In this document: positions 13,646-32,585 of the stretch, piece by piece | Layout of the letters: every line of letters starts with the position of its first letter | How positions within the stretch are numbered: position 1 is the stretch's first letter | Assembly: GCA_002887195.1 (NCBI GenBank) | Contig: PJAB01000240.1 | Location: 1 to 32,585 of the forward strand | Source: Chrysochromulina parva | Lineage: Eukaryota; Haptophyta; Prymnesiales; Chrysochromulinaceae | Length of the DNA stretch: 32,585 nucleotides | Reading direction: 5' to 3' | The notes under the pieces: generated by a model | Database searches by the model: none | Told to the model about the DNA's origin: nothing | Seen by the model: the letters and a program-made list of their open reading frames with translations, nothing else | Made by a program: the position numbers and the translations under genes

Positions 13646-15817
13646 TCATGACTCTACACGCCGTCTGCGGCCAGCGCCACGCGCGTCGCCGCCGCCGTCG
13701 CCACCGCGTCCGCCGCCATCGCCGCCGCGCCCTCCTCGGCCCGCCGCACCGGCAGGCGCTCGGCGAGTAAATGCCCCAGGCGTTCGGCGAGTGAAGGCCC
13801 CTCGGGCGCGGCCGCCGCCTCTCGCGCCCGATGCACCCTCACCGGAAGCCCTGGGGTTTCGTCCAAGCGCCGCGCCGGGCGCCTCACCGGATGCCCTGGG
13901 GTTTCGTCCAAGCGCCGCGCCGGGTGCCGAGCCTGTGGAACGGCCACTCCCCCCTCCACCGACGACGCCATCCACGCCCCTCCCCCCTGGGAAGGCGGCT
14001 GAGCCGGCGCCGATGCGCATACCGCCCGGCCCGCGCGCGAGTGGCTGCAGCTCCGTCGCGGCGCGCTGCTTCACCATGCGCACGTGCTCATCCCCCGCCG
14101 CCACCAGATCCTTGCGCTGCTTCTGAGCGTCGCGGATTGCCCGCACGAGCTCAAGGTCGCTCTTGGTGACGAGATTCGTCACGGTGCCCGACTTACCGGC
14201 ACGCGCGGTGCGCCCGCAGCGATGGACGTAGTCGGTGGCGCTCTTGGCGAAATCAAATTGGACCACGTGGCTCACCTGTGGGGAAGGGGAGAGGGTGAGG
14301 GCGCCGTGGTGAGCACTTGCATGCGCGCGCGATGGACCAGCGTCTAATTGGGCCACGTGGCTTACATCCAGCTGGTCCAGCCCGCGGGCAGCAAGGTCCG
14401 TCGTCACCAGCACGTGCGCCTCCCCGCTCGTGAAGCGCGCGAAGTTGGCGGCGCGCTCGTTGGCAGGCACCGCGCCGTGGTAGTTGGCGGTCGCGTAACC
14501 CTCCTCCGTGAGGGTATGGTCGACGAAGCGGGCAGACTCCTTTGAGTTGCAGAAGAGCACCACACGGCCGAGGGACGGGCGGCCACCCTCACCCGGCACT
14601 CCGAAGAGGTCCTTGAGAGCATTCACCTGATGAGGGGGGCCATCAGATCTCATCAGGCGCAATCAACGGCCATCAGTCCTTGAGCATTCACCTGATGAGG
14701 AGGGTAATGGAGGTCGATCGAGATGCAATCAGATGCAATCAGATGCTCTCAGACGCGCTCAGACGCGCTCGGAGGCACTCAGATGCAATCCGCCGGCGCT
14801 CATCCCGCCAGCGCCCATCCAGCCAGCGCTCATTCAACCGGCGCTCAGACAGCCCGCGCTCACCTTGGCATCGGGCCCGTTGCACGTTAGGAAGCGCTGC
14901 TCGAGGGTAGGCGGCACCATGTGGTTGCCCGCGAGCATGAGCTGACGCGCGCCACCGAGCCAGCGCTCGTACAGCGCGAGCGCACTCTGCGGGTGCGTCG
15001 CGCCTACGGCGAGGTGCTGCACGGCACCGCATACGTCCGCGCGCTTGTCCGCGCTCAGGTCACGCGTGGTCACCTTCAGGACTGCGTCAAGGTCGGCACC
15101 GAAGCCGGCCTCGAACATAGTGTCGACCTCGTCGAGGATGACGTGGCGCACGTCGCCCAGGTACAGATCGCCCTGCTCGATCAGCTTGAGCAACCGGCCG
15201 GGCGTCGCCACGAGCAAGTCGACGGACCGCTCGAGCTTCTTACGCTGCGCGCCGTCGGGCACGCCGCCGCTGACCACCTCGACGCTGAGCTTGGCGTGGT
15301 GCGAGAGCTGCTTGGCCACGCTGTGCACCTGCATCGCGAGCTCGCGAGTGGGCACGAGCACCACCGCGCGCGGCCGCTTGGGCTTCGCGCGCCCCGCGAG
15401 GGCCGACTCGTCGTCCTTGATGCTCTGCATCGTGGGCACGAGGTACGTGAGCGTCTTGCCCGAGCCCGTCTGCGCGCCCAGGATGAGGCTCTCGCGACCG
15501 AGAATGGCCGGAATTGCAAAGTTCTGCAGCTCATTCGGCTTGTGCACGCCCGCGGCGTCCAGCGCCGCGCACAGCTCCTCGCGCACTCCGAGCGCAGCGA
15601 ACGCCGAAGGCGTGGCCGCGGTGGCGGACACGCAGCGGATGGGTGCCCGCGGGGCGCACCCCGTGACGAAGAGCCCGGGGGCGAGCGCCATCGAGCAAGT
15701 GAGGTGCACGGCGTGGCCGGATGCTGCCAGCAGCATGAGCGTGATGGGCGTGCGACGTCGCAGCATGGACGTCATCAATGGACGAAGTGCGTCCTTCGAA
15801 TGAAACTTCCTCCCCAA
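13646..15817 (-). CDS. DEAD-box RNA helicase, DEVD variant, possibly organellar (3 exons)
   Basis: Exons 15817-14864, 14626-14366, 14275-13646 give about 614 residues, stop TGA 13648-13646. Visible helicase motifs: Q-motif PNELQNFAIP, motif I AQTGSGKT, Ia VPTRELA, Ib TPGR, II DEVD (rather than DEAD), TTDLAARGLD (motif V region), and VI HRCGRTARAG. The stretch between ATGs at 15775/15766 and the helicase core (MLRRRTPITLMLLAA...) looks like a signal or targeting peptide, so import into the plastid or mitochondrion is possible; a start at 15775 or 15766 may be better than 15817. The C-terminus is an RGG/GGDGG-rich tail, typical of RNA binding. Plant organellar DEAD proteins with DEVD exist, but specific orthology is not claimed. 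ATP-dependent RNA remodelling is expected. Confidence 0.85.
14276..14365 (-). mobile_element. Family A introner in the DEAD-box gene (intron 2)
   Basis: A 90-bp intron. Its first 23 bases (14365-14343) match the first 23 bases of exon 3 (14275-14253) with three mismatches. The remaining body has GCATGCAAGTGCTCACC, then ACGGCGCC, then a pyrimidine run ending CCCCACAG. The exon copy encodes VSHVVQFDF, the expected DEAD-box segment; the intron copy reads VSHVAQLDA. Length is 3n and the frame stays open. Confidence 0.85.
14627..14863 (-). repeat. DEAD-box intron 1 with an internal exon-start copy
   Basis: A 237-bp intron made of short GATGC/CAATC-type words (GAGCGCCGG and GATTGCATCT arrays). Near its 3' end a copy of the exon 2 start (GTGAATGCTC-AAGGAC at 14691-14671, against exon 14626-14606) follows a CCTCATCAG, and a second CCTCATCAG precedes the real exon. 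This is the same nested layout as kinesin intron 3 and ASCC3 intron 19. Confidence 0.75.
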
Positions 15818-17959
15818 ACCCCCGAGATCGGCTTCAGATCAAGTTCAAGTTCAAGTCAAGTCAAGTCAAGTCTGGTCTGTTGTTCATGTAGTGACTTGAT
15901 TCGACTTGCTTCAGATCAGTCTACAGTTGTGCGTGCGTCTGGTCAAAAAAGGACCTCATAATATCCCGGGGCCGCGCGTTTACATGACTTCTGCAACAGG
16001 CCAGCAAGCGGAGTGTGTGAGAAAATTTCAAACGGACAATTTCAAACGGAGTGCACCTGATGGGCTCTTGCACCTTTTCATGATGGGCCTGCTGGTCGTG
16101 AAGCGGAAAATCTACAACATCAAATCCACTGAGCTCGGTGAGCTGGAAACGCGGCGGCGTACTTCCATGACCATGTGGCGGAGGGCGGCACAACATGTTC
16201 CCAAAGCTGGATTGGAAACGGCGCTTGATCCCAAACTAGCGCAGGCCTTCAGCCGACGCTGATGGCCGCGCTAAATGCATGCCAGCACGCCACCATCAGC
16301 AGCCCAGCACCCTTTGCCCAGCACTCAGATCTCAGTGGCCGCAGAACCTGTCCAGCAGGCGGGGCTGCCGCCCAAGTCCCTCGCAGAGTCCTGCAAATCA
16401 TTTGACACGAGCAGCAGCAGCAGCACAGCAGCAGCAGTACAGCAGCGGCGCCGGCGCGAGCAGCATTCAGACTAAATACAAGGTGAACCCGTGCGGGGCC
16501 AAAGCTGGTTTTAAGACTGCCAAGATTACCGAACGTTCTGGCCATCTGGGGCCTAAGCCACCCCTATGGCCAGTCCCACTTGCCACTGGACAGTGGTTCA
16601 CTTCATCCTTTGAACCATGCAGGTTGCTGGCTCGGCTTTCAAGGCCAGCAGGCGTAAGACAAGGCCGACGTTCTGGAAGCACGCCACGCGTCTTCCTCGG
16701 GTTATGCCCAGGCGGAGACATACTGCCGGCCCCACGGAGTTGAAGGTGAAGCTTGAGCTGCCGCAGCGCTCCACCTTCACAGGGGTGAGGCTGTGGCCGC
16801 CAGAGGGAGCTCTCTATGGGAGAAGCTCAAGTCATTCTGTTATTAATATGGGAGAATCAGAGCTTGCCCAAGCTCTTATGCAGGTTGCAATACCCCCCCC
16901 AACCGCCACCTCATTACTGGTGGCGCTGGATGTGACACAACAACAGCCTGGTTCCAAGCATCCGGACCCCCGTCACCGAATCCTCCACCTCCACCTCCAC
17001 CTCCACCACCGCTGCCCCCGCCAGCACCGCCGCCGCCATCGCGTGCGTGCCAAGACCAGCGCCAAGTTCTGGCAAGGGCCTCGCTGAGCAAAGGCGGCTC
17101 GAAAATGCGGCCGGCAAGACAAGGGCTCTCACACAGATCCGGACGTTGTTGAAATGTCCCTATGGCATGCCTTCGTGCAACCGGAAGTCGACGGCAGGAC
17201 TGATTCTCGAGCTTAGAGAACAAGAACCATCAGGAACGCAATCAAAATATGCTGGTGTGAGTATCGTCGGATGGTTATCGGATGGTCAAAGGATTTGTTT
17301 TGTACCTCGATTAGTGGCAGAAACCAAGTCTACCATTCGGCGGAGATGGCGGCGCTCGACCGAGCATCTGCGGGGGTCCTGTCCGAGTATCGTCAAGGCG
17401 TGCGCTGTGCTGCGCGAGTTCCAGCAGTCTAATTGCTACGAGCCGGGCGCAAAGGCCGTGCGAGGCGCACAAATGCAACGGCTCATCGATGTTGCTGGCC
17501 TCGCGGGGATCTGCTGGATCGCATACGATGTTCTGGCGGAGGACGAGGTCTGGAGTGTGCCGACCGGCATTCGCTCAGCTGGGCATCGACAACCCAAGGC
17601 AGGAGTCAGATCTGAAGCGGCGGCGCAAGTTTGAGAAGTGGAGGAAAAAGCTCACGGACTGGGCGGTTGCTGAGCGGGCGGCAACTGGGCAGTTCCTGAG
17701 CGGGCGGCGACTGCGGACGAGGCCGCCGCCGAGGGGCTCGTGCTCGTGTCGTCAAACAACGAGAGTGGCTGTCAAAAGTACGTGACCAGAGGTGTCCCAC
17801 TGAGATCAAGTCGACGCGCTCGTGGACAATCTGGCGAGATGGCCTCCTCAGCAACCCTGCTTTCCATCCCTCACCTCACCCGAAATCACCCCCCCTTTTC
17901 CCCCCCTTCCCCATCGCATGCATGCGGTTTCCCCACATTGACACACAACGTGACGCATT
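15818..17959. other. 2.1-kb region without a recognised gene
   Basis: This lies between the divergent starts of the DEAD-box and ASCC3 genes. It is less GC-rich than its neighbours. It contains (TCAAG)n-like words at 15840-15875, a doubled AATTTCAAACGGA near 16022-16048, a CAG-rich stretch at 16410-16450, and (CCTCCA)n at 16983-17010. Several open frames exist (15906-16262, 16617-17087, 17047-17634, 17489-17785, plus), none with a recognised domain. It may hold a fast-evolving gene with introns, a decayed element, or only regulatory sequence. Confidence 0.4.
17047..17785 (+). pseudogene. Possible unknown coding region split between two frames
   Basis: One frame (17047-17634) contains protein-like text such as YAGVSIVGWLSDGQRICF and GICWIAYDVLAEDEVW. 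A second frame (17489-17785) continues with KRRRKFEKWRKKLTDWAV before a stop. The switch of protein-like composition near 17560-17600 could mean an unspotted intron, a frameshift in a decayed gene, or chance. I do not recognise any family, and confidence that this is coding at all is low. Confidence 0.2.
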
Positions 17960-18428
17960 GTGGCGTCGCCGTCGTGTGGGGCTTTCACAATGGAGACTCT
18001 CAGCACGCTCCTCCATGCGAACACGCCCGACCTGCACGACTGGCGAACGCGCCGCCTTCGCATCTTACGGCTGCGCCGCGCCGCGGCAACGCCCACTGGC
18101 AGCGCTCCAAAGAGCTTCTCCGAGCTCGCCGGCGTGTCGCAGAGGACTCCGGGCTACGCGGAGCAGGCCGACAACTATCATCGCTTCCTTGGCGCTGTGA
18201 ATGCCGCACTCGGCGGCGAATCGCCGCCCGATGAGGTGGCGCATGCTGCTGCCTCCGCCTTCCGCGCGCTGCAGGCTCTTCCCGAGCCAACTGCAGAGGC
18301 CGCGGCCACCAAGCCGCCCGGGATCAGTGCGCACGGCCCTCCTGGACTGGCGGCGCCGACCGCGCAGATCAGCCGCCAGACGATGCAGCACGCGCGCGGT
18401 CTTCTCACTGGTGGTGCCGTCAGTGGCA

Positions 18429-18463
<35 letters not shown>

Positions 18464-21400
18464 AGTGTTGCCACTGCCACTTTGAATGCAGCGGCCGCGG
18501 CCGCCTCGGCAGCGTGCGCGGCAGCCTTCGGCGCATCGCTCGGCGATGAGCCCATCCGCCAGATGGTGAGTGCTCATGCGCCGCTGGCCGCGTGGCTGCG
18601 GGAGCACCGGCTCCGCACGGGCGGCGGTGGGGGCAGCGGCGGCAGCACCACCACCGCCCCCAAAAAGGACGGCGAGACTCCGAGATCAACTCCGAGATCA
18701 ACTCCGAGATCAACTCCGAGACTCGCTCCAGGCGAGACGCCCTTGGATGCCTCGGGCGCCGCCTCCGCCGCCATCCCTCCGCCCGCGCGCGACGCGTACA
18801 CTCGGCTCCTTCGCGCTGTGGAGGAGGCGGCCGCCGCGGCCGAGGCGGCGGCCGCGGCCGAAGCGAAGGCGAGAGAAGAACGACTCGCGGCCAACCGAGC
18901 GGCGAGTGCGGCGGCGGCGAGCGCGGCGGCGGCATCAGCGGCGGCGGCGGCAGCCGACGGCGGCGGCAGCGGCAGCGGCATTGGGGGTAGCGATGGCGGC
19001 GGCGGTGCTGTTGAGCCTTCGCCAGAAGGGACCATCGGTTGGGTACGCGAGCGCTGCCGCATGCATCTGTATGCGAATTTGGAAGGGGGTGGCGTGGCGA
19101 CCGACGCAGAGGTGGATATGCTCAGTGCAACGCTCCTCGGGCAACTCTACTCCAATACGACGGAGGACGCACTGCAGGTGATTGCCATCGATTGCCACCG
19201 ATTGTCACCGACGGCTACCCATTGCCACCAATGGCCACCGATGGCCTCCGATGGCCACCGATGGCCACTGATGGCCTCCGATTGCCACCGATTGCCACTG
19301 ATGGCCACTGATGGCCACCGATGGCCTCCGATACTGATTGCCACTGATGGCCAACTGATGGTCCCATGCGCCCACCACGTCGCGTCACGCACTGCAGGGC
19401 GACCTGCTCAGCCTGCTCGGCTTCGGCGCGCTGGAGCTGATTGCGACGGTGCTGCCCGCACGGGTGCGTGTGAAGGACGATCTGAAGCGGCTGCTCGCCG
19501 CCGCTGAGCATGCGGATGCGGACGGGAGCTCGAGCGGCGGGCTGGGTGGCAGTGGCGGTGCCGGCGGCGGCCCCGCAGCGCCCGTTGGTTGCATGGTCAA
19601 GCTGACCACCAAGTCGCAGCAGGTGCTCGAGAAGCAAAGGCGCAAGGACGCGACGAAACTTGCCAAGGAGAAGCGCCGCGCCGCGCTCGAGGAGACGCGA
19701 TCTCCCGACGAGATCGCGGCCGAGCTCGAGTGGCTGAGCGCGGCTGGATTCGAACCGGCCGCGAAACTGCTTCGTCAGGAGGAGGAGGCCAAGGCGGCCA
19801 AGCCGCTCGCGCCCGACTCGGCGCTCGCGCAGCTGCGTAGTCTCGCCTCCATCAGCGGATTGGGCAAGGCGCTCCCAGAGGGCACTGTACGGCGCACCGG
19901 TAAGGGGTGGGAGGAGGTGCAGGTGCCGCCCGCCCAAACCACGAAACTCGAGCAGAGGCTGGTCCAGATCAGCGAGCTGCCTGAGCATGCGCAGCTGGCC
20001 TTCCGCGGCGTGCACGCCCTGAACGCGCTCCAGAGCGCCGTCGTGGGCGTGGCGCTCCATTCGAATGAGAACATGCTCGTATGCGCTCCGACGGGGGCGG
20101 GCAAGACGAACGTGGCTCTCCTCGCGATGATGCAGCAGGTGCGGGTCTGTTGCCCGGAGGGGGGGGACGGGGGCAGGGGGGGGTGGGGGGAGGTGGAACG
20201 GGGATGAATTTGGGGAAATTGACCCTCGGATGACCCCTGCGTGCTTCTGATTGCCTCTTCGAACGCCTCTGAACGCCTTTGTTGGGTCCTGCCTAATTTG
20301 GCAGGTGGGCCTGTGCTTCGAGGAGGGGAGCCTCGTACGCGAGAAGCTCAAGATGATCTACATCGCGCCCATGAAGGCGCTCGCCCAGGAGCTCGTGGGC
20401 AAATTCTCCAAGTCCCTCGGTCAGCTCGGGCTGCAGGTGCGCGAGTACACGGGCGACATGCAGCTGACGAAGCGCGAGATCGCGAGCACGCACCTGATCG
20501 TGACCACGCCCGAGAAGTGGGATGTGGTTACACGCAAGGGGTCGGATGCGCTCGTGTCCGCGGTCGGGCTGCTCATCATTGACGAAGTCCATCTGCTCAA
20601 CGACGACCGAGGGCCCGTCATCGAGGTGCCGAGATGGCGCGCCTCCTCTGATTGCATGTGATTGCCTGTGATTGCCTGTGATTGCATGTGATTGCATGTG
20701 ATTGCATGTGATTGCATGTGATTGCATGTGATTGCATGTGATTGCATGTGATTGCATCCCTCATCAGGCACTCGTGGCGCGCACGCTCCGTCTCGTCGAG
20801 TCGTCGCAGCAGATGATCCGGATTGTGGGCCTCTCGGCCACCCTGCCCAACTATGCGGACGTCGCTCTCTTCCTCAAGGTGATGGCTCTTGATGGCCTCT
20901 TGATGGCTCTTGATGGCTCTTAAGAGCCCCGACTGGCCCTGATTGACCCGGATCGACCTTTTGGCCCCGAAATCCCACAACTGCCGGGCGTGTCTCTCCT
21001 CCTCAAAGGTCAACCCGGCGACTGGTCTCTTCCACTTTGGGCCGCAGTACCGCCCTGTGCCACTGACGCAGACCTTCATTGGAGTGACGAAGACGAATGT
21101 CAAGGAGCGGAACGACATGATGATCCAGATTGCGTACGAAAGGGCACTCATCGCGATCCGACGTGGCAAGCAGGTGATGGTCTTCGTGCATGCCAGGTCC
21201 GACACGGTGCGCACGGCGCGTGCACTCCTGGAGCTCGCGAGGAAGGAAGGCACCGCCGAGGAGCTCCTTCCAAAGTATGACGAAATCCCGACGTTCCAGC
21301 TCAAGGTTAAGGAGGTGGGCTGAGTGCTCCCTGATTGCTGGCGGAGCTGCAGGCGAGATACCAATGAGTGTGGCTGAGTGCTCCCTGATTGCTTCTCTGA

Positions 21401-24400
21401 GTTCCTTCCTGAGTGCCTCCCTGAGAGCCTCACTCATTGCCTCCCTGACCGCCTTCCTAATTGCCTCCCTGACTGCCTCCTTGACAGCCTCCCTGAGTGC
21501 ACCTGATCGCCTCTCTGAGTGCCCCTTTGATGGGCAGGTGGGCAAGTCCAAGTCTCCCGAAGTACGCGAACTCTTCGGGGGCGGCTTCGGCGTCCACCAC
21601 GCGGGCATGCTGCGCGCCGATCGGGGGCTGAGTGAGCGCTTGTTCTCCGAGGGCCTCCTCAACGTGCTCGTGTGCACCGCAACGCTCGCCTGGGGAGTCA
21701 ACCTGCCCGCGCACACGGTGATCATCAAGGGGACGCAGCTGTACGATCCCGAAAAGGGCTCCTTCAAAGACCTCGGCGTGCTCGACGTGATGCAGATCTT
21801 TGGACGGGCGGGACGACCCCAATTCGATACGAATGGCGGCGAGGGCATCATCATCACGCAGCATGCCAAGCTCGCCCACTATCTGCAGATGCTCACCTCG
21901 TCGATCCCGATCGAATCGCAGTTCGTCTCACGCCTGTGCGATCACATGAACGCCGAGATTGCGCTCGGCACAGTCACCTCGGTACGCGAAGCCGTCACGT
22001 GGCTCTCGTCTACGTACCTGCACCTTTGCATGCAAGTGCTCACCACAGCGCCGTGTCTTCACAGGTACGCGAAGCCGTTACGTGGCTCTCGTATACGTAC
22101 CTGCACGTGCGCATGATGCGCAATCCTCTCGCGTACGGCATCCCTTATGAGACCGGCATGACCGACCCACGCCTCGTCCGTTGGCGCACCGAGCTGATCC
22201 AATCGATGGCGCGCCGGCTCGACAGGTGAGTGCCCCTGATTGCACTTGATTGCACCTGATTGCATATGGTGACCTCTGATCCATCAATGGCTCACCGGCT
22301 CGACAGCGGCCGCATGATCCGGTTCCATGAGGCCTCCGGATCCCTCGACCCGACCGAACTAGGCCGTACCTCGTCGCACTTCTACCTGTCCGTGGACACC
22401 GTCGAGACGTTCAACGAGATGCTCTCTCCAACGAGCAACGAGGCCGAGATCCTGCACACGCTCTGCAGCGCCGCCGAGTTTAGTCAGATCAAGGTGAGGA
22501 GCGGATGGCGCCTGATGGGCGGCCTGCGGTTCGTCTGAGTGCCTCCCTGATGACTGCCTGAGTACCTGTCTAAATATATGCGCGTGTGCCTGCCTAATTA
22601 GGTGCGCGAGGAGGAGATGGAGGAGCTCGAGGCGCTGCTCGACCAGGCGCCGCTCAACGTCAAGGGCGGCCTCGCTTCCAAAGAAGGCAAGACCTGTGTC
22701 CTGATGCAGGCGTACATAGGCGGACTACCGGTCAAGGCGTTCGCGCTCGTCTCGGACTGCACCTTCATTGCGCAGTCGGCCGCGCGCATCGCGCGAGGTC
22801 TGTTCGAGATCACCCTCGCGCGCGGATGGCTCTCGTATGCCGAAAAGGTGCTGGTTGCCTCTGATTGGTGCTCATTGCCTCGGTTTGCCTGAGACTGCTT
22901 CCGATGGTGCCTGAGATTGCTTCTGGGCTCGCTTGATTGTCTGTTGATTGAAGGTTGATTGCGTGATGATGGCGTGCGGATGGCATGCTGATTGTCTGTC
23001 CGTGAATGCAGGTGCTGCGTATCTCGAAGATGCTTGAGCAGCGGGCGTGGGCGTTTCGTCACCCGCTGCGCCAGCTCGGCAATCTCCCGTTTGAGATCTA
23101 CGACAAGCTCGAGGCGAAGCGCGCGAGTGTCGATACGCTCCGCGATCTCGACGTGAAGGAGATTGGTGCGCTCATCAGCAATATGAAGCAGGGCCCCGCC
23201 ATCAAGGCGGAGGCTCGTCAATTGCCTCTACTACTCGTGGACGTGAGTGCGCAGCCAATCACGCGCACCGTGCTGCGCGTCAGCCTGACACTCACCGCGG
23301 CCTTTGACTGGGTCGACCGCCACCACGGCGGCATGGAGCCATTTTGGGTCTGGGTACGCGATTGCCACAGATTGTCACTGATTGCCACTGATTGCCACTG
23401 ATTGCCATGGATTGCCATGTATTGCCATGGATTGCCATGGATTGCCACTGATTGCCACTGATTGCCATGGATTGACACTGAATTCCATGGATTGCGTCGG
23501 ACGACCCCGTGTGGCCGCTGGAGTGCCGTTGAGTACCGCTGAGTGCTGCTGAGTGCTGCTGAGCGTCGCTGAGTGCTGCTGAGTGCTGCTGGTCTCTGGT
23601 CGCAGGTCGAGGACACCGAGAATGAGCACATTTATCACAAGGAGCTGTTCACACTGACCAAGATGAAGAAGGACGAGCCGCACACCCTCGCGTTCACCAT
23701 CCCCCTCTTTGAGCCCCTCCCCCCCTGCTACTTCGTGCGCGCCATCTCCAACCGATGGCTCGGCGTCGAGACGATTGTGCCGTTGCCGCTGAGTGAGCTG
23801 CACTTGCCGACAGCGCAGCCCGCGCACACGGAGCTGCTCGACCTTCGGCCGCTCCCCAAGACCGTCCTCTGCGATCCAAATTGGGAGGCCCTCTTCAAGT
23901 TCTCCCACTTCAATCCGATTCAGACGCAGGTCTTTCACACCGTCTTTCACACCGACCAGAACATCCTCGTCGGCTCGCCTACGGGCTCCGGCAAGACCGT
24001 CACCGCCGAGCTCGCGGTACTCCGTCTCCTCCGAGCGCACCCCGGCATGAAGGCCGTGTACATCGCGCCGCTCAAGGCGCTCGTGCGCGAGAGACTCGAT
24101 GACTGGACGACGAAATTCGTCAAACGGCTCGGCCTCTCGCTCCAGGAGCTCACCGGAGATTCGGCGCCGGACGCGCGCGCACTCGCCACGGCCGACATTT
24201 TGGCCACCACGCCGGAGAAGTGGGACGGCGTCTCCCGCCACTGGCAGCAGCGCGGCTACGTCCGGCAGGTAAGCCGCTGCGCCTCGGTTGGACGGAGATC
24301 TCGTGTTGACGAGATCTCGTGTTGGCAAAATCTCATGTTGATGAGATCACGATCTGCTCGAGTCGGTTGAGGCCTCTGAGGAGCTCTGATTGCATCTCGC

Positions 24401-27400
24401 GTTCGGCAGGTGGGGCTGGTCATCATTGACGAGATCCATCTGCTCGGCGAAGACCGTGGGCCGATTCTCGAGGTGGGGCCAGATTGGTCACTGATTGCGA
24501 TTGATTGATTGACGAGATCCATTCTCGAGGTGGGGCCAGATTGGTCACTGATTGCGATTGATTGATTGACGAGATCCATTCTCGAGGTGGGGCCAGATTG
24601 GTCACTGATTGCGATTGAGTGCGAGTGCGATTGAGTTCGAGTGCGATTGAGTGCGATTGAGTGCGATTGAGTGCGTCCATCATCAGGTTATCGTGAGTCG
24701 GATGCGCTACATTGCGACCAAGACAAACGCTTCCATCCGCATCGTCGGCCTCTCAACCGCGATGGCCAATGCACACGACCTCGCTGACTGGCTCGGCATC
24801 CCGCCCGATGGCCTCTTCAACTTCAAGCCGTCGGTAACGAACCGCTCCTCCCTAATTTGGGTGCGCGTCGCCTCCCTAATTTGGCGCGTGCTCCCTCCCA
24901 AATTAGGTACGCCCGGTGCCGCTCGAGGTGCACATCGCGGGCTTCCCTGGCAAGCACTACTGCCCCCGCATGGCCACAATGAACAAGCCAACGTACCGCG
25001 CGATCCTCAATCACTCGCCTACGAAGCCGGTGCTCGTCTTCGTCTCGTCTCGTCGCCAGGTCTGATTGCACTACGACTGCATCCCTGATGACTTCGGATG
25101 GCCTTCTCACTCCGCCAGTGCTCGCCTCATGCCGCTGCTGTGAACATTCACAGACGCGCCTCACGGCGCTCGACTTGATTGCGTACTGCTCTGCGGATGA
25201 GAGGGACACTCAATTCGTCAATCTCCACCCGAGCGAGCTCGAGCCGTTACTCGCGACCATCAAGGACGGTGCCCTCAAGCACACGCTTGCGTTTGGGGTG
25301 GGCATCCATCATGCTGGGCTGTGCGAGAGCGACCGGACGACCGTTGAGCGCCTGTTCGTCTCGCAAGCCATCATGGTGCTCGTGTGCACCTCGACCCTCG
25401 CGTGGGGAGTCAACTTTCCCGCGCATTTGGTCGTCGTCAAAGGGACCGAGTTTTACGACGCCAAGACGAAGCGGTACGTCGAGTTTCCGGTGACCGAGGT
25501 GCTTTGCATGCAAGTGCTCACCACAGCGCCGTGCCCCCCGCGCAGGTACGTCGACTTTCCGGTGACCGATGTGCTTCAGATGATGGGTCGTGCGGGCCGG
25601 CCGCAATTCGATGACCAAGGCATCGCAGTGATCCTTGTGCACGAGCCCAAGAAGACGTTTTACCGCAAGTTCCTGTAAATGAGAACTCTTGCCGAGGGAG
25701 ACGTGATTGCGATGGATGACGTCTGATGGCGTGTGATGAGCTCGCTGATTGCCTCCCTCATTAGGTACGAGCCCTTCCCTATCGAGTCGTGCCTGCAAGA
25801 GCAGCTGCACGATCACATCAACGCCGAGGTGGTGAACGGCACGATCACCTCGAAGCAGGTGCGTGATGACCACTGATGACCACTGATGAACGTCCATGAC
25901 GTGGCAGCTTGGCCACTGGTGGCAACACGTGCCCTTCTGATTGATAGCCACTGATGACCACTGATGACCACTGATGACCACTGATGACTCCTGACGAGGC
26001 AGGACGGTGTGGACTTCCTCTCGTGGACGTACTTTTTCCGACGGCTCGCGCGTAACCCCGCGTACTACCACCTCGAGGTCCCGATGGTCGCGGCGTCGGC
26101 TTCCTCCTCCCTCGGCCTTGACGAAGCAGGTTCGTTAATGGGCTCGTTTATCGGCTCGCTGATGACCTCACTCATTCGACCTCGGCTGATTGCCTCACTC
26201 ATTCGACCTCGGCTGATGACCTCACTCATTCGACCCCGGCTGATTGCCTCACTCATTCGACCTCGGCTGATGACCTCACTCATTCGACCTCGGCTGATGA
26301 CCTCACTCATTCGACTCCGGCTGATTGCCTCACTCATTCGACCTCGGCTGTGTGCAGTGAACACGTTCCTATCCGATCTCATCGAGGGCACGCTGTACGA
26401 TCTCCAGAGCGCGGGATGCCTCGAGATTGACGAGATCGACGGGAGCTCCGTGCGCCCTCTCACGCTCGGGCGGGTCGCATCGTACTACTACCTCAAGTAC
26501 ACGACGGTCGCGCTCTTCTGCGCAGAGCTGCATGACGTCGACGAAGCCGTTACGGAGCTGCCCACCCTCCTTCGAGTGCTCTGTGACGCTTCCGAGTTTG
26601 ATGAGCTTCCGGTACTCGTCACCACCGATGAGCAATTATGAGCACCGATGACTACTGATTGCGTCCGCATCCGAGCACTGATTGCGCCCCTCATCAGGTA
26701 CGTCACAACGAGGAGCACGTGCATGCACAGATGAGCACCGAGCACTGATTGCGCCCCTCATCAGGTACGTCACAACGAGGAGCACGTGCATGCACAGATG
26801 AGCACCGAGCTGCCGTGGCGTGTCGACCAGTCGGCCCTCGACTCGCCGCACGTCAAGGCTCACCTGCTGCTTCAAGCGCACTTCGCACGCACGCCTCTTC
26901 CAATGTCGGACTACGTCACCGACACCAAGTCGGTACTCGACCAGGCGATGCGGGTGCTCCAGGCCATGGTCGACATTGCGGCGGATGGAGGCTGGCTGGA
27001 CACGACGCTGTCAGTGATGCACCTCGTTCAGATGGTGACCCAGGCTCGATTCCTCGACGACTCTCCCTTCACCGATCTGCCCCACGTCGATGACAAGGTA
27101 GAGGCGCGGCGGCCCTGCGTGCAGAGGGCGTCACTGGTTGCAGCTCTGAGTGCATGTTTGATGATCTGATTGCGTATGATCTGATTGCGTTCCTCATCAG
27201 GTGGAGGCGGCGCTGCGCGCCAAGGGCATCACCGACCTCGCCACCCTCGCGCGCCTGCCCATAGAGAAGCTCCGACAGCTGCTTGGCGGCGTGCTGCGCG
27301 AAAGGCCGATCGGCGAGCTCGCCGAGGTGCTACGCGCCTTGCCCACGCTCACGCTGCGCGCGGAGGCGCCCCATACGGCGCTCGCCCCGGGCGAGGAGAG

Positions 27401-27686: not shown

Positions 27687-28546
27687 GACGCTAGTGTGTT
27701 CACCGCTCGCTCCTGCGCGCTGGCTTTGATTACTGGCTTGATGGTTGGCGTTCGTTGGTGGCACGTGAAAGGCCTGGTGCCTGGTTGTGGTAGCTTTAAT
27801 ACTCTTCCACCGGCGGCGCATCGCGATCCCCCCCGAACCGCAATCATGCTTGCGTCCCCGCGCAAACTCACAGTCTCAGTCACGGACATATATGTGTACG
27901 CACAGTCTCGGAACAGACGACATGTTGAGAGAGCTCCGCGTTCTGCCCCCCAGGGGGGGCTCTACACTGTAGCACACGCTCGCGCTCGCCACTCCCGTCC
28001 CCCCCTCCGCGCCCTTCGACGCGCCCTCATGGTCAGGCGCGCTTCCCCCCTGCCCCATGAGGTCGCACTCTGTTTGTCGAGCGCGTGCTCCTTTTGCGAG
28101 CGAACAAGTGTTACGCAAGACCCATTTTTAGGTCCATCTTAAGAATGTACGATTCGTTTGTTGTCAAGTCAAGTTGTGTGAACCACGTCCCCTCCGTTGC
28201 GGAGCACGGTGACTTCTAAAACACCTTTTCGGTGTCGAGCTGTCGAGGAAGCGCAGCCGCCCATGTCTCAAGTCTTTCATCTTTGTTCTTTTGAAGGATG
28301 GATCAGCCGCGGATACAATGCCCAGTTGAAAATGAGGGCCAACGAGTGGGCAAACATAGTCCTTTTTGAGCAAGTTCCCCTTCGGAGAGAAACAGCTTTG
28401 TTGCGCCTATCGTGCGAGAATGATGCCCTCCAAGGCGCAGTCCAGTGCGTCGAGCATCTGGGCCGATACAGCTTCCCATCAGCTATCTGCCGCAACAGAC
28501 GTTCAGAATCCCATCTCCGTTGGGCAGCTCCGCCGAAGCTACGGCG
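27687..28546. other. Intergenic region upstream of the cyclic-nucleotide-binding gene
   Basis: 860 bp between the ASCC3 stop and the chosen start of the next plus-strand gene. It should hold the ASCC3 3' UTR and the next gene's promoter and leader. The part 28100-28400 is AT-richer. Several short open frames occur but none has a recognised domain. The next gene's frame is open back to 28445. Confidence 0.45.
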
Positions 28547-30468
28547 ATGTTGGCGCGCCAGCAGCTCAAGAAGCCGCCAGGTTTTCTGCAGGAGCTGCAG
28601 CTGTCACCGCGCCGGCCGCACCCGCGTGCGGGGCTGCCGATGCTTGAGTCGGTCGAGGGCGTGCAGAGTCCGAGGACGTGGCTGCCGACCTCGCCTCGTG
28701 GCCGCGTGCACGTCAGATCGCTCGTGCTCGACGAGCCGGCGGGGCCGCCAGCCGAGCCGGCCGTGCCTGCGGCGCATGCATTGGCCTCCTCGCCCCAACC
28801 CATCAAGGCGTCTGTCTTCGCCTCCGCGACGCCCATCGAGCTCTCCAAGGCGCACGCGCGCGCGCTCTCGTCCCCATCATCGGGCGACGACGAGTCGACC
28901 GAGGCGACCGACAAGAGGCAGCGGCTGCGGCTGCTCGACGACATGCGCTGGATCCTATTCAACAAGACGGACGTGTACCAGCCGCGCGAGATGCCCTCAG
29001 CGCTCTCGCCCGAGCAACTCGCCGACGTCGTCGACACCCTCTCGCGCGTGCACCTCTTCCGACGGTTGAGCGACCAGCAGCTGTCGGAGCTGCGCCGGCT
29101 AGGCAAGCATCGGCTCTACCCTCGGTACTAGAGCCTCTGAGAGCCTCTGAGAGCCTCTGAGTGCCTCTGTGTGCCTCTGAGTGCCTCTGAGTGCCTCTGA
29201 GTGCCTCCCTGAGTGCCTCTGAGTGCCACTCTGATTGCCTTTGAGTGCCTCTGAGTGCCTCTGATTGCATATGATTGCCTCCCTCATCAGGTACTCTCGG
29301 ATCTTGCGTGAAGGCACGCGCTCCACGTCACTCTTCGTGCTGCTGAGCGGGCACATCGCCGTGTACAACGCCAAGAGCGGCGAGACGCCCACGAGCTTGG
29401 GGCGCGGCGCCCTCTGTGACGAAGCCTGCCTCGTGGCCGAGGTCGCGCGAGAAACGTCCGTGAGCGCGATCACCCCATGCCACGTGCTCGTCCTCGAGCG
29501 GAGCGCGCTCGTGTGGAATGCGCCGACGGAGCTCGATCCACGGCGCGTGCTGCGTGCGCCTCCGATGGCCGCGCTCACGACGACGCCCGAGTTCCACGAG
29601 CTGCGCATCTCCGTGATTGCGGGCATGCTCGAGGCGCTCGCATTCTTCCGCAGCCTGACGCACGGCCGTCGCGCGGCGGTGGCGGCGCTCCTCGAGGTGG
29701 CGACGTACGTGGTGGGCGAGGTCGTCTTTGAGCAGGCACGCGTCCCTTGATTGGCCTTGATTGCCCTTGATTGGCCTTGATGGCCCTTGATTGAACCTGA
29801 TTGACCCTGATTGACATTGATTTTGACACTGATGGAGAGGTCGTCTTTGGCAGGGTGACGCGACCGAGATGGCCATGTACCTCGTGACCGAAGGGCAGGT
29901 CGAGCTGAGCCAGGGAGCGTTAGGGCGCGACATGAATGGTAATGCACGCCCCGCCATCGTGCTCGCCCGCGTCGATCCCGCCTCCGAGCGCCCTTGGTTT
30001 GGCGAGCTGCAGCTCTTTATGAGGCTACCCCGGCACAGCACGGCGACGGTGCTCCAGCCCGCACGCCTGCTCAGGCTCAGCCCCAACCACTTTGAGGAAT
30101 TCCTCGAGCTCCTGCCGGACTTTCGCACCTTTCTGAACCGCTCGACGCGCTCGTCAGCCGCGCACGCGATCTCGAACCGTGAGATGACTCTCGAGCAGAG
30201 CCGCGCTGACGAAGCGCGGAATCGGATGCAGTCGACCGTGTCGGTCGTCTGGCAGTCCGGCGCGCGCCTCGGCACCAACGCCGTCCTGGGCGCCAGTGGG
30301 GCCGCCGAACGCTCGGCGTTTGCGGAGCGGTGGGAGCGCCTCGTGACAGCGATGCTCGCGCGGGCGGGCGACTCGGACTACACGAAGGCGATGGCGACCG
30401 TCTCGTTCAAGACGACGGACTACATACCGCACGGCCAGCGCCCGTCGAGGGACGTGGCGAGCGCATGA
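28547..30468 (+). CDS. Protein with two cyclic-nucleotide-binding-like domains (3 exons)
   Basis: Exons 28547-29124, 29291-29735, 29854-30468 give about 545 residues, stop TGA 30466-30468; an in-frame ATG at 28445 is an alternative start. The first domain (from about codon 28985) has VHLFRRLSDQQLSEL, then FVLLSGHIAVY, the CNBD beta-roll pattern, but its phosphate-binding cassette is poor. The second has FFRSLTHGRR, then VVFEQGD across the exon 2/3 junction, MYLVTEGQVEL, and FGELQLFMRLPR (from 29998), retaining the cassette Gly-Glu and Arg, so cAMP/cGMP binding is plausible there. The layout recalls PKA regulatory subunits, but no inhibitor motif is evident in the Ser/Pro-rich N-terminus. No transmembrane channel or kinase domain is present. 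The ligand and partner are unknown. Intron 2 has a GC donor. Confidence 0.8.
29125..29290 (+). repeat. CNBD gene intron 1 with GAGTGCCTCT 10-bp array
   Basis: A 166-bp intron made of GAGCCTCTGA / GAGTGCCTCT words at mainly 10-bp spacing (about 29130-29260), ending TTGCCTCCCTCATCAG. The start GTACT is shared with the next exon start GTACTCTCGG. Confidence 0.85.
29736..29853 (+). repeat. CNBD gene GC-AG intron 2 inside a direct repeat of about 28 bp
   Basis: A 118-bp intron. The junction block GAGGTCGTCTTTGAGCAG|GCACGCGTCC (29718-29745) recurs in drifted form at the 3' junction (from 29837: GAGGTCGTCTTTGGCAG|GGTGACGCG). Repeat similarity extends to both sides of the splice point. The body is TTGATTGGCC/TTGATTGCCC at about 10-bp spacing. 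Splicing yields VVFEQGDATE, the expected CNBD sequence. Confidence 0.85.
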
Positions 30469-31182
30469 CGCGCCGTTTCGGCGCGTGCGGCCGCTCCCCG
30501 CGCATCTCGGCGCATCTCGGCGCATCTCGGCGCACGAAACGCTGACGAAACGTGATCGGAAAAGGTGCTGCCTGGTGGGCAGTACTACGAATGGGAGTCA
30601 AGCGGTTTTGAGCACAAGAAAGAAGAAACCCCCCAAATTGATCATTGTCCTATCCGCACCGCGGTACCTCGTCACCCGGGAGACCGTCTGACGGTGATGG
30701 AAATGGGCTAAATCCAAATGTGGCGAAATCGACGTGCGTGCGGTCGACGGTACACGCGGTAGACGACCCCGCCTCGCGGACACGACATATCCGCTCACAC
30801 CACAGTCGGTGCACAGGAGGACAGCTCTGCCTCTGGGGACATATGTAAATATCGGCACGGCATGGAGCAGCGCGTACTCATCTATGCCGTATGTAGACCA
30901 TGTGGTGGCCGGTGTATTTGAACGGCTCCTGCACGTGCGACTCCGCGGGTCGGCTCGGCTTAACGGACCGGTAGCGGTACCCCCCCGACGCGAGTGCGAA
31001 GATGCGTCGATGGAGGTGTGCGTGGAACCGTGGATCACGTCCGGTCGTAGTCGTTATGGGTTATGGCGCATGCATTTTTTCGTCGGCACCATGGTCGGCA
31101 CACGCCCGGCACCGACCGCCACCACAGAGCTCAGAGTTTACCGGAGTACAGCGCAACCGAATTGTGGAGCGGAGCGGAGCGA
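30469..31182. other. Intergenic region between convergent genes
   Basis: 714 bp between the CNBD gene stop and the deaminase-like gene stop. It has three GCATCTCGGC 10-bp repeats (about 30502-30534) and an AT-richer patch with AAGAAAGAAGAAACC near 30617. No gene or RNA structure is recognised. Confidence 0.45.
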
Positions 31183-32585
31183 TCATCGCAGCGGGCTCTC
31201 CCGGAGCGAGCGCAGGAAGGTGGACAGCACGCCGTCGAGCTTGGCCCGGAGCTCCACGTGCACACGCGAGAAGGCCGAGCCCCGCTGGCCACGCGTCGCG
31301 TACCTGTGGGGAAAGGGCGCCGTGGTGAGCACGTGCATGCATATATGATCGTGGAGGTGGTTCAGCTGGCCACGCGTCTCGTACGCCTCGGCCACGGCCG
31401 GGTCGCACAGGGTCGCCAGGTAGGCCCAGTCCTTCTCGTCTGTCGCGCGCATCGTCACTCCGGGCGCATTGGCTACCAACAGTAGGATGCCCTGCCGTGC
31501 CGAGGCGGCGTCGGCGCAGTAAGCCGAGCTTCGAACGCAATCGTCGGGCGCCCTCTCGATCATCAGGTCCTCCGTCCACATGGCCTTATAGAGGTCGGCG
31601 ACCACGAGCTCAAGCGAGATTGCATGCTCGCGCATCTCGGCCTCATAAAAGGCGCGAAGGCGCTCCGAACAGCTCGTCGGGTGACCTTGGTCCTTACGCC
31701 TCGCGGCGAGCTCGAGCTGCTTGCGTGCGTCCTCGGGCGTCTTCGCCTCGGGCAGCCGACCACCTGAGTGGTGGCAGGGCTGATAGCTCATGTAGAGCCG
31801 AAGGATGCGTGCACGATCGCCACCAGCGTCCGACCCCCCCCGAAGCAGCGCAAGCAGCTGGGGATCCGCGAGCATGAACTCCTCGGCATGCACGTTCCAC
31901 TCGGAGCGCCCGCGGAAGCAGTTGGCGTACCTGTGGGGAAGGGCGCCGTGGTGAGCACTTGGATGCCATATGGAGTTACCGCGGAAGCAGTTGGCGTACC
32001 TGGCGACGTACAGGTCAGCGCCGTTCTGGGCACCGAGCACGCGCGCCACGATGGTCACCTGTGCTTTGGTGCACTTGTCGCGCGTATCGACCTTGCCCCA
32101 TCGAGGAGCCCCCCCCGGCCCGTCGCGCCGGCCGCGCTCGCCCCTCCTGTCGCCCTTGGCATACCGTGCGACGTCGCCGGCCTCGGCGGCCGGCATCTGG
32201 AGCGCATCTCCGGGGATCTCTAGCGCATCTCCCGCCGCGTTGAGCGGCTGGCCGAGGCACAAGGACACGTCCGCTTCCCATTGGTTCGCGTGATAAAAGG
32301 CACGGCAGAATTGGGACAGGTCGCCCAATAAGCTGCGGTATCCATGGGGGAGGCTGGTGCACGTGACAGCATGGGGCGGGGCGTACGTGGTAAACCCTTG
32401 AAACGAGGCGTGGGCTGGGCGCTGGCACTGGCAGCGCGTCCCGGGGCCACTGCCGAGCCCGCCAAGCCTGTCGCCGCCGCCCTGCCTGTCGCCGCCGCCC
32501 TGCCTGTCGCCGCCGCCCTGCCTGTCGCCGCCGCCCTGCCTGTCGCCGCCGCCCTGCCTGTCGCCGCCGCCCTGCCTGTCGCCGC
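31183..32585 (-). CDS. AID/APOBEC-like zinc-dependent deaminase, 5' end beyond the window
   Basis: Exons (minus): beyond 32585 to 32000, 31930-31385, 31303-31183; stop TGA 31185-31183. The frame is open to the right edge with no in-frame ATG before the conserved region, so the start lies outside. Deaminase signature: WNVHAEEF (HAE codons 31890-31882), then LRLYMSYQPC (Pro-Cys codons 31779-31774), and a second Cys in TSCSERL (31671-31669). The following ISLELVVADLY resembles the 'v-L-i-f-v-A-R-L-Y' strand of AID/APOBEC enzymes, and GVTMRATDEKDW resembles the next segment. The two Cys ligands are separated by 34 residues instead of the usual two to four, an unusual insert if both bind zinc. Cytidine/nucleic-acid deamination is inferred. 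At the edge the frame encodes GGGDRQ repeats. Two family A introns interrupt the gene. Confidence 0.6.
   Translation of the reverse strand, partial: GDRQGGGDRQGGGDRQGGGDRQGGGDRQGGGDRQGGGDRLGGLGSGPGTRCQCQRPAHASFQGFTTYAPPHAVTCTSLPHGYRSLLGDLSQFCRAFYHANQWEADVSLCLGQPLNAAGDALEIPGDALQMPAAEAGDVARYAKGDRRGERGRRDGPGGAPRWGKVDTRDKCTKAQVTIVARVLGAQNGADLYVARYANCFRGNSIWHPSAHHGALPHRYANCFRGRSEWNVHAEEFMLADPQLLALLRGGSDAGGDRARILRLYMSYQPCHHSGGRLPEAKTPEDARKQLELAARRKDQGHPTSCSERLRAFYEAEMREHAISLELVVADLYKAMWTEDLMIERAPDDCVRSSAYCADAASARQGILLLVANAPGVTMRATDEKDWAYLATLCDPAVAEAYETRGQLNHLHDHICMHVLTTAPFPHRYATRGQRGSAFSRVHVELRAKLDGVLSTFLRSLRESPLR
31304..31384 (-). mobile_element. Family A introner in the deaminase-like gene (3' intron)
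   Basis: An 81-bp intron. Its first 20 bases (31384-31365) match the next exon start (31303-31284) with one mismatch (GTACGAGACGCG against GTACGCGACGCG). The body has TGCATGCACGTGCTCACC, ACGGCGCC, then CTTTCCCCACAG. Length is 3n and the frame stays open. Confidence 0.85.
31931..31999 (-). mobile_element. Family A introner in the deaminase-like gene (5' intron)
   Basis: A 69-bp intron. Its first 21 bases (31999-31979, starting GTACGCCAACTGC) are identical to the next exon start (31930-31910). The body has GGCATCCAAGTGCTCACC, ACGGCGCC, then CTTCCCCACAG. Length is 3n and the frame stays open, so read-through would duplicate YANCFRG. Confidence 0.85.
32467..32585 (-). repeat. 18-bp minisatellite coding GGGDRQ at the window edge
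   Basis: More than six near-perfect 18-bp units (plus strand CCTGTCGCCGCCGCC plus CTG) run to the right edge. In the deaminase frame on the minus strand they read (G-G-G-D-R-Q)n. Since the array is cut by the edge, its length and the true gene start are unknown. Confidence 0.8.

What the first reader, a model, noticed from the sequence alone, without database searches (positions are those of the whole stretch)
14276..31999. Family A: a 38-50 bp micro-introner at five sites in three unrelated genes
Five introns (14365-14276 minus, 21982-22064 plus, 25474-25545 plus, 31384-31304 minus, 31999-31931 minus) share the core GCAAGTGCTCACCAC, then (A/G)GCGCC and a pyrimidine run to CAG, always in the sense orientation of the host gene. 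Each begins with a 20-42 bp copy of the following exon. The mobile part is therefore only about 38-50 bp and supplies the acceptor, while the donor GT comes from the duplicated target. This matches the logic known for introner elements in some algae (one splice site from the element, one from the target duplication), but the element is far smaller and the target duplication far longer than typical DNA transposons.
Basis: partly seen in the sequence, partly recalled or inferred. Interest (0 to 1): 0.9.

Follow-up and report, generated by a model that had tools for sequence, protein, structure and literature searches.

The report
Branch-point micro-introner flanked by long duplications
In a photosynthetic alga, probably a haptophyte, a tiny repeated DNA piece that looks like an intron branch point sits at more than a thousand places, usually between two 13-51 bp copies of the target, and many of these insertions look like newly made introns, which gives an unusually readable record of how introns may be born.

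Summary
In detail: five introns with core, Y-run and CAG, each starting with a copy of the next exon. The genome has 1,369 copies of the 15-mer at <=1 mismatch (control 6). Of the first 100 listed, 82 have flanking repeats (3.3% of mispaired flanks), variable in length (median 28 bp outside tandem arrays). Splicing is inferred, not seen: two window junctions align gap-free to human ASCC3; 17 of 17 acceptor-type copies with coding flanks keep phase after splicing, 12 of them only then. Four of the five window introns are open multiples of three, so frame alone does not prove them. An unrelated second family has the same duplications, one at a site empty in the window. My reading: duplication-with-filler at DNA level; a copied piece with a branch point makes the duplication an intron, and the target supplies the missing splice site. 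Repair or template switching versus retrotransposition is unproven. New variant of introner-type intron gain.

The parts
14276..14365 (-). Intron 1 (DEAD-box helicase gene): donor in copy of next exon, core, Y-run, CAG; 90 bp, open in frame if unspliced
14343..14365 (-). Intronic copy of next exon (23 bp); exon copy at 14253-14275
   Evidence: identity 0.87
14306..14320 (-). Core GCAAGTGCTCACCAC with branch-point-like CTCAC
   Evidence: branch-point reading is inference
21982..22064 (+). Intron 2 (ASCC3-type helicase gene); 83 bp, frameshift if unspliced
   Evidence: spliced exons align gap-free to human ASCC3 across the junction
21981..22023 (+). Intronic copy of next exon; exon copy at 22064-22106
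22032..22046 (+). Core, exact
25474..25545 (+). Intron 3 (same ASCC3-type gene); 72 bp, open in frame if unspliced
   Evidence: spliced exons align gap-free to human ASCC3
25473..25504 (+). Intronic copy of next exon; exon copy at 25545-25576
25510..25524 (+). Core, exact
31304..31384 (-). Intron 4 (Inv-AAD-like deaminase gene); 81 bp, open in frame if unspliced. P0122 and P0123 carry it with a frame-changing length difference; P0121 runs across the site without it
31365..31384 (-). Intronic copy of next exon; exon copy at 31284-31303
31322..31336 (-). Core, one mismatch (GCACGTGCTCACCAC)
31931..31999 (-). Intron 5 (same deaminase gene); 69 bp, open in frame if unspliced. P0121 and P0122 begin inside it; P0131, P0125 and P0124 run across the site without it
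31979..32002 (-). Repeat incl. CAG of preceding exon; second copy 31910-31933
31948..31962 (-). Core, one mismatch (CCAAGTGCTCACCAC)
22202..22306 (+). Second-family insert ((CTGATTGC)n filler), repeat 22202-22225 / 22283-22306; reads as donor from filler, acceptor AG from the copy of the preceding exon
   Evidence: splicing not tested
1768..1868 (-). Second-family insert (CTGATGACC words, end CCTCATCAG) between identical 25-bp repeats
31736..31763 (-). Empty site in the window: the 28 bp GTGGTCGGCTGCCCGAGGCGAAGACGCC after a CAG, which protein P0131 reads twice, around a second-family insert
   Evidence: DNA of P0131 not seen, inferred from its protein

Best explanation
These are young spliceosomal introns made at DNA level by a duplication-with-filler event inside coding exons. 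The target stretch (13-51 bp outside tandem arrays) ends up on both sides of a short copied filler. Fillers that contain a branch point (here TTGCATGCAAGTGCTCACCAC(R)GCGCC, branch point CTCAC) plus one splice site turn the duplication into an intron: with the acceptor Y-run CAG, the duplicated target gives the donor GT; with the donor GTACGT..., it gives the acceptor AG. Copies with neither are found mostly where the insert is a multiple of three. The filler is copied from an existing intron, often a near one. Shown by sequence: insertion structure, frame pattern, two splice-site modes, a second family with the same duplications, and one second-family site empty in the window but filled in a close relative's protein. 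Inferred: that splicing occurs, the branch-point identity, that the core copies are absent from some relatives' DNA, and that the copying is repair- or replication-coupled (staggered break or template switch with short homology) rather than by a transposase or reverse transcriptase.
For: 1,369 genome copies vs 6 control. 82 of 100 flank repeats vs 3.3% mispaired; 70 of these outside tandem loci, length median 28, middle 80% 18-37, identity median 0.94. Acceptor-type: insert length mod 3 is 11/13/16 of 40; of 39 evaluated 17 have two coding flanks, all 17 keep phase after splicing, 12 of them are not multiples of three. Donor-type: 12 of 18 with coding flanks keep phase. No splice site at the junction, non-tandem, hand-picked: 13 of 14 multiples of three, p 6e-6. 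Gap-free ASCC3 alignments. Relatives' introns differ by frame-changing lengths (P0122, P0123, P0166). Second-family insert in P0131 at a site empty in the window. Second family: 25 of 50 repeat-flanked vs 3.6% mispaired, 19 of them with mod 3 of 6/6/7; 1,621 genome copies, control 0. Linkers of same-contig copies alike: 0.66 vs 0.53, permutation p 2e-4 over 24 pairs. Examples of shared bases at the 3' junction: L095, L013, L123 (6 nt), L038 (8 nt). Duplications with unrelated filler exist (15 of 167, 11 multiples of three).
Against: Two modules dominate the fillers, which looks like elements rather than chance capture. Four of five window introns are multiples of three without an in-frame stop, as are 5 of the 17, so they could in principle be read through. 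Of the 14 copies without splice site the codon model sense coding, 2 antisense, 1 unclear and 9 not clearly coding. Local likeness is weaker in a second data set (3' linker p 0.03, 5' side p 0.18), and some same-contig pairs may be gene duplicates. At acceptor-type 3' junctions the shared bases do not exceed mispaired pairs. 18 of 100 copies have no clear repeat. 6 of 18 donor-type copies do not keep phase (by eye five in tandem or nested arrays, one with a misread acceptor); a first automatic count gave 1 of 4, three of these with the acceptor not set at an AG. No RNA data and no DNA of the relatives.
Confidence: 0.5

Rival explanations
1. Non-autonomous retroelement: a short RNA (perhaps an excised intron) is reverse-transcribed at a nicked target (target-primed reverse transcription), giving variable duplications and 5' truncation.
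For: Variable-length duplications, shared bases between the insert's 3' end and the start of the duplication in examples, variable 5' ends, sense bias.
Against: Donor-type copies have an exact 5' end and a variable 3' end, the reverse of what this predicts. Only 5 weak RVT_1 matches (best 34 bits); RVT_2 none, but nothing rang in the controls, so absence is not shown. The five introns do not fold better than shuffles; no Rfam match in the window or in ten loci.
Confidence: 0.2
2. Miniature DNA transposon introners.
For: Multi-copy, one splice site from the insert and one from the target duplication.
Against: Duplication length is not fixed (13-51 bp outside tandem arrays) against 3-9 bp cited for DNA-type families (PMC9860276, passage in part 2); no terminal inverted repeats seen by eye; both ends vary; a second unrelated family shares the duplications.
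Confidence: 0.1
3. Reverse splicing of excised introns into transcripts or single-stranded DNA, then reverse transcription.
For: Same-contig copies more alike, sense orientation.
Against: Reverse splicing leaves no target duplication and inserts whole introns (recalled); here half-introns between duplications, and copies without acceptor.
Confidence: 0.05
4. Ordinary tandem repeats or minisatellites in coding sequence misread as introns.
For: In-frame repeats are common here (61 of 71 'other' repeats are multiples of 3); some core copies form tandem arrays (L012, L019, L092); four of five window introns are open multiples of three.
Against: Acceptor-type inserts are not multiples of 3 more often than chance (11 of 40); homologues lack them; relatives' versions change frame.
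Confidence: 0.04

Closest known systems
Introner elements of Micromonas, Aureococcus, Symbiodinium, Chrysochromulina, Florenciella (Gozashti et al. 2022, PMC9860276; text parts 1-2 of 7, the TSD methods section and search passages seen)
   Same: Many similar introns; one splice site from the insert, the other from the target duplication, in both directions; short (family medians of 30-654 nt). Their Chrysochromulina example carries the donor and co-opts the acceptor, like the donor type here.
   Different: They cite 3-9 bp duplications and often inverted repeats for DNA-type families; here 13-51 bp and variable. Their pipeline asks for similarity to near both splice sites, which acceptor-type copies lack on the 5' side. 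Copies without splice sites and a second family with the same duplications were not in what I saw.
Tandem genomic duplication of AGGT exon segments (review PMC3443670, passages; potato RdRp PMC4974935, abstract and outline)
   Same: New intron bounded by a duplicated exon segment that gives a splice site.
   Different: There the duplicated segment itself supplies the intron; here a repeated branch-point-like filler sits between the copies.
[quoted passage not shown] PMC3443670, passages)
   Same: Direct repeats explained by staggered breaks, inserted filler.
   Different: Repeats described as short; here long, and the same two filler families again and again.
Direct repeats near intron splice sites (PMC11782384, abstract only)
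   Same: Repeats of 4-30 bp (mean 11.4) near the borders of 213 introns.
   Different: Broad survey with mostly short repeats; no repeated filler in the abstract.
Fungal introner-like elements and stwintrons (PMC8469720, passages)
   Same: Proliferating, sense-only introns.
   Different: No flanking duplications, internally symmetrical; here duplications, and no symmetry seen.

Membership tests
Introner (intron-generating repeat) | Many similar introns at unrelated sites in one genome | tested here: met
   179 strict acceptor-type matches; 104 donor-type heads at <=3 mismatches; intron status of each not shown
Introner (intron-generating repeat) | Similarity reaches near both splice sites | tested here: not met
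   In acceptor-type copies the intron's 5' part is the target copy, different at each site
Introner (intron-generating repeat) | Recent insertion at a site empty in relatives | tested here: inconclusive
   P0121, P0131, P0125 run across core-family sites but could be spliced RNA; for the second family the window is empty where P0131 is filled
Introner (intron-generating repeat) | Spliced | tested here: inconclusive
   Frame and homology support it; no RNA-seq
DNA-transposon (MITE) introner | Fixed short target duplication | tested here: not met
   13-51 bp, quartiles 22-34, outside tandem loci
DNA-transposon (MITE) introner | Terminal inverted repeats | tested here: inconclusive
   None seen by eye in the copies printed (output of 29 was cut); no dedicated search
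Retroelement by target-primed reverse transcription (SINE/LINE-like) | Constant 3' end, variable 5' end, variable duplications | tested here: not met
   True of acceptor type; donor type is the reverse
Retroelement by target-primed reverse transcription (SINE/LINE-like) | Reverse transcriptase with endonuclease in the genome | tested here: inconclusive
   5 weak RVT_1 matches in a fragmented assembly; endonuclease not searched
Tandem genomic duplication intron | Intron made of the duplicated segment, with no foreign filler | tested here: not met

The most novel reading that the evidence does not exclude
A genome-wide intron-making system without a transposon: a host duplication-with-filler process copies portable branch-point modules (two unrelated families, together about 3,000 pattern matches) into exons, and the duplicated target supplies the missing splice site, so the branch point, not the whole intron, is the unit that spreads.
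Probability: 0.4. Interest if true: 0.9.

Novelty: new variant of a known kind. Interest (0 to 1): 0.74.

Why it matters
How new introns arise is a long-standing question with few cases caught in the act. Here many insertions still carry recognisable target copies and come in two complementary splice-site modes, next to copies without splice sites that mostly keep triplet length, so insertion and selection for splicing might be told apart. If the branch-point-module reading is right, massive intron gain needs no transposase. A survey that demands similarity up to both splice sites would miss the acceptor-type copies.

Tried and rejected
No Rfam family in the window or in ten loci. RNA folds of the five introns are within shuffles (z 1.21, -0.75, -0.39, 1.07, -1.09). 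Other collections: one IMG/VR contig end (L151) holds a real-looking copy on a phage-like contig, probably a chimeric assembly; one 19-mer match in a Flavobacteriales MAG (L152) lacks the rest of the element and fits chance; a stricter pattern found none in IMG/VR. Paralogues with an empty site: none seen in the 25 strongest of 1,078 locus pairs and the self-matches printed. Short homology at acceptor-type junctions: not above mispaired pairs. An 18S search by typed pattern found nothing.

Rows dropped or set aside: 18 of 100 copies with repeat score under 13; 48 of 100 without a clear coding orientation; 1 of 40 acceptor-type copies could not be parsed and 22 of the 39 lacked two coding flanks; 12 of 41 donor-type copies had no repeat or AG; 7 same-target pairs. 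The 14 copies without splice site were picked by eye from 31 automatic 'other' copies after their sequences, and so their lengths, were in view. The 17 left out (listed) are 8 in tandem arrays and 9 with a likely, displaced or doubtful splice site or a poor alignment; 11 of these 17 are multiples of three, so the automatic set gives 24 of 31. The first codon model used two seeds in a wrong frame; it was redone with one of six seeds still in a wrong frame, which the final model scores negative. At first I read P0121's residue L (window: R) at the intron-4 site as proof of an empty allele; in P0122 and P0123 that base falls on a wobble position, so the argument fails and was dropped.
Full report
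What is there. The five introns are at the stated coordinates. In each, the donor GT lies in a 20-42 bp copy of the next exon, followed by GCAAGTGCTCACCAC (two with one mismatch), (A/G)GCGCC and a pyrimidine-rich end in CAG. They lie in a DEAD-box helicase gene, an ASCC3/SLH1-type helicase gene (two introns) and an Inv-AAD-like deaminase gene (two introns).

Genome scale. The window is contig 240 of a 45.07 Mb, 2,199-contig genome. The 15-mer occurs 695 + 674 times at one mismatch or fewer, against 6 for the reversed pattern. The strict acceptor-type pattern occurs 179 times; the donor-type head GTACGTTGATTGCCACTGATGACCTGCCTTGCATGC occurs 104 times at three mismatches or fewer. The genome is that of an alga: 58 exon-level light-harvesting matches. 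Named sources among the best hits are haptophytes: Coccolithus braarudii, 74% on one light-harvesting protein, and a Prymnesium MAG, 69% on the helicase. Haptophyte is an inference.

Duplications. Of the first 100 exact copies listed, taken without regard to structure, 82 have a flanking direct repeat at score 13 or more, against 3.3% for mispaired flanks. Leaving out eight loci with tandem arrays, 70 copies have repeats of 13-51 bp, median 28, middle 80% 18-37, median identity 0.94; with them the longest is 70. The long and variable length is the most unusual feature.

Three outcomes. (A) Acceptor from the insert, donor from the repeat: 40 of 100 by rule. Insert lengths are 11/13/16 by remainder. 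All 17 with two coding flanks keep phase after splicing; 12 are not multiples of three and keep it only then, the other 5 would read through. (B) Donor from the insert, acceptor from a copy of the preceding exon: 11 of 100 by rule. In a wider set of 41 heads, 29 had a repeat and an AG, 18 of them two coding flanks, and 12 of 18 keep phase; of the other six, by eye, five are in tandem or nested arrays and one has a misread acceptor. (O) Neither splice site at the junction: 31 by rule, 24 multiples of three; of 14 hand-picked non-tandem ones, 13. Triplet length suggests coding sequence, but the codon model calls only 2 of the 14 sense coding, 2 antisense, 1 unclear, 9 not clearly coding, so 'in-frame peptide insert' is not established. 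The core is open in all three sense frames. L014 looks like a full-length copy with both splice sites (by eye). Over all 100, coding orientation is sense in 48, antisense in 4, not callable in 48.

Splicing. There is no RNA evidence. Only one of the five window introns (21982, 83 bp) would shift the frame if retained; the other four are multiples of three without an in-frame stop. Against read-through: spliced exons at 21982 and 25474 align without a gap to human ASCC3 (8alz_B); the unspliced reading lowers the Helicase_C score a little at the DEAD-box and 25474 sites (86.3 to 83.7 and 35.5 to 30.6 bits); and close relatives' versions of the 31304 intron (P0122, P0123) and of the 14276 intron (P0166) are read in a different frame after the intron, that is, they differ by non-triplet lengths.

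Presence and absence. P0121 (97% identical over 90%) begins inside intron 5 and then runs straight across the site of intron 4. P0131 (96% over 38%) and P0125 run straight across intron 5. Each could be an empty allele or a partly spliced transcript; the tool does not say whether the source was DNA or RNA. Firmer is a second-family case: P0131 carries an insert read as SDCMLMASDCMLIASLIR at a site empty in the window's DNA, and its two flanks both fit GTGGTCGGCTGCCCGAGGCGAAGACGCC, a 28-bp duplication starting after a CAG. Its DNA was not seen. P0124, a more distant relative (71%), is continuous at both core-family sites.

A second family. Inserts made of CTGATTGC/CTGATGAC words ending CCTCATCAG show the same duplications: 25 of 50 at score 14 or more against 3.6% mispaired, a few of them in tandem arrays. 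The end TGATTGCCTCCCTCATCAGG occurs 1,621 times at one mismatch or fewer, control 0. In about 300 kb (window plus 90 loci, the ascertained copies masked), 167 local duplications comprised 23 with the core, 63 second-family, 55 repeat-like filler, 15 unrelated filler and 11 pure tandem. Multiples of three are 12 of 23 and 28 of 63 in the first two classes, against 48 of 55, 11 of 15 and 8 of 11 in the rest, as expected if only the first two can be rescued by splicing.

Mechanism. Both families carry motifs that fit a branch point (CTCAC; CTGAT/CTGAC); this is recalled consensus, not tested. The part shared by A and B copies is the branch-point stretch, the one signal that a duplicated AG/GT target is unlikely to supply; note that copies were found by this stretch, so its constancy is partly by construction. 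Both insert ends vary, and some 3' junctions share 6-8 nt with the target (L013, L095, L123; L038), though acceptor-type junctions as a group do not exceed mispaired pairs. The variable linkers of same-contig copies are more alike than others (24 pairs, p 2e-4; weaker, where 35 pairs gave p 0.03). Four copies on contig 251 with different targets have linkers 0.83-1.00 alike, and in the window the two ASCC3 introns share the stretch around the core, as do the two deaminase introns. I therefore favour copying from nearby introns during repair or replication, with selection keeping what is spliced or frame-keeping. Retrotransposition is the main rival. The genome holds DNA polymerase A family matches, one weak match in a 2,488-aa frame that could be polymerase theta.

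Novelty. In the open-licence library I searched introner with target site duplication, introner alone (40 of 67 papers listed), with Pelagomonas, with haptophyte, in newer papers on horizontal spread, and intron gain with direct repeats, Chrysochromulina or templated insertion. In the listings, abstract starts and passages I saw, nothing describes introners with such long variable duplications. I read no paper in full, and most subscription papers are not held.

Noticed in passing
window 31183-32391 (-): Gene related to Inv-AAD (AID/APOBEC-type) deaminases, with HAEEF and PCHHSGG motifs; none of the 35 hits has an informative name.
   Followed up: partly
window 20649-20755, 26158-26350, 29167-29268, 19290-19353: Short-period tandem repeats such as (TGATTGCATG)n and (CTGAGTGCCT)n, with words like those of the second intron family.
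   Followed up: no
L093, L117: Core copies with a different acceptor end, CCCTAATTAG, instead of CCCCACAG: an acceptor subfamily.
   Followed up: no
L037:226-304: Duplication with d 57 whose filler holds two TACTAAT words, possibly a third branch-point-bearing filler.
   Followed up: no
L151:4300-4554: End of a phage-like IMG/VR contig carries a core copy and an (ACGAACCCTG)n filler between repeats of roughly 38 bp (by eye); probably a chimeric assembly with the same or a related alga.
   Followed up: partly
G000 C200:2373-2846: Weak DNA polymerase A match in a 2,488-aa open frame; candidate polymerase theta.
   Followed up: no
L012, L019, L092, L039, L045: Tandem arrays of target copy plus core, suggesting repeated insertion at one site or later expansion.
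   Followed up: no
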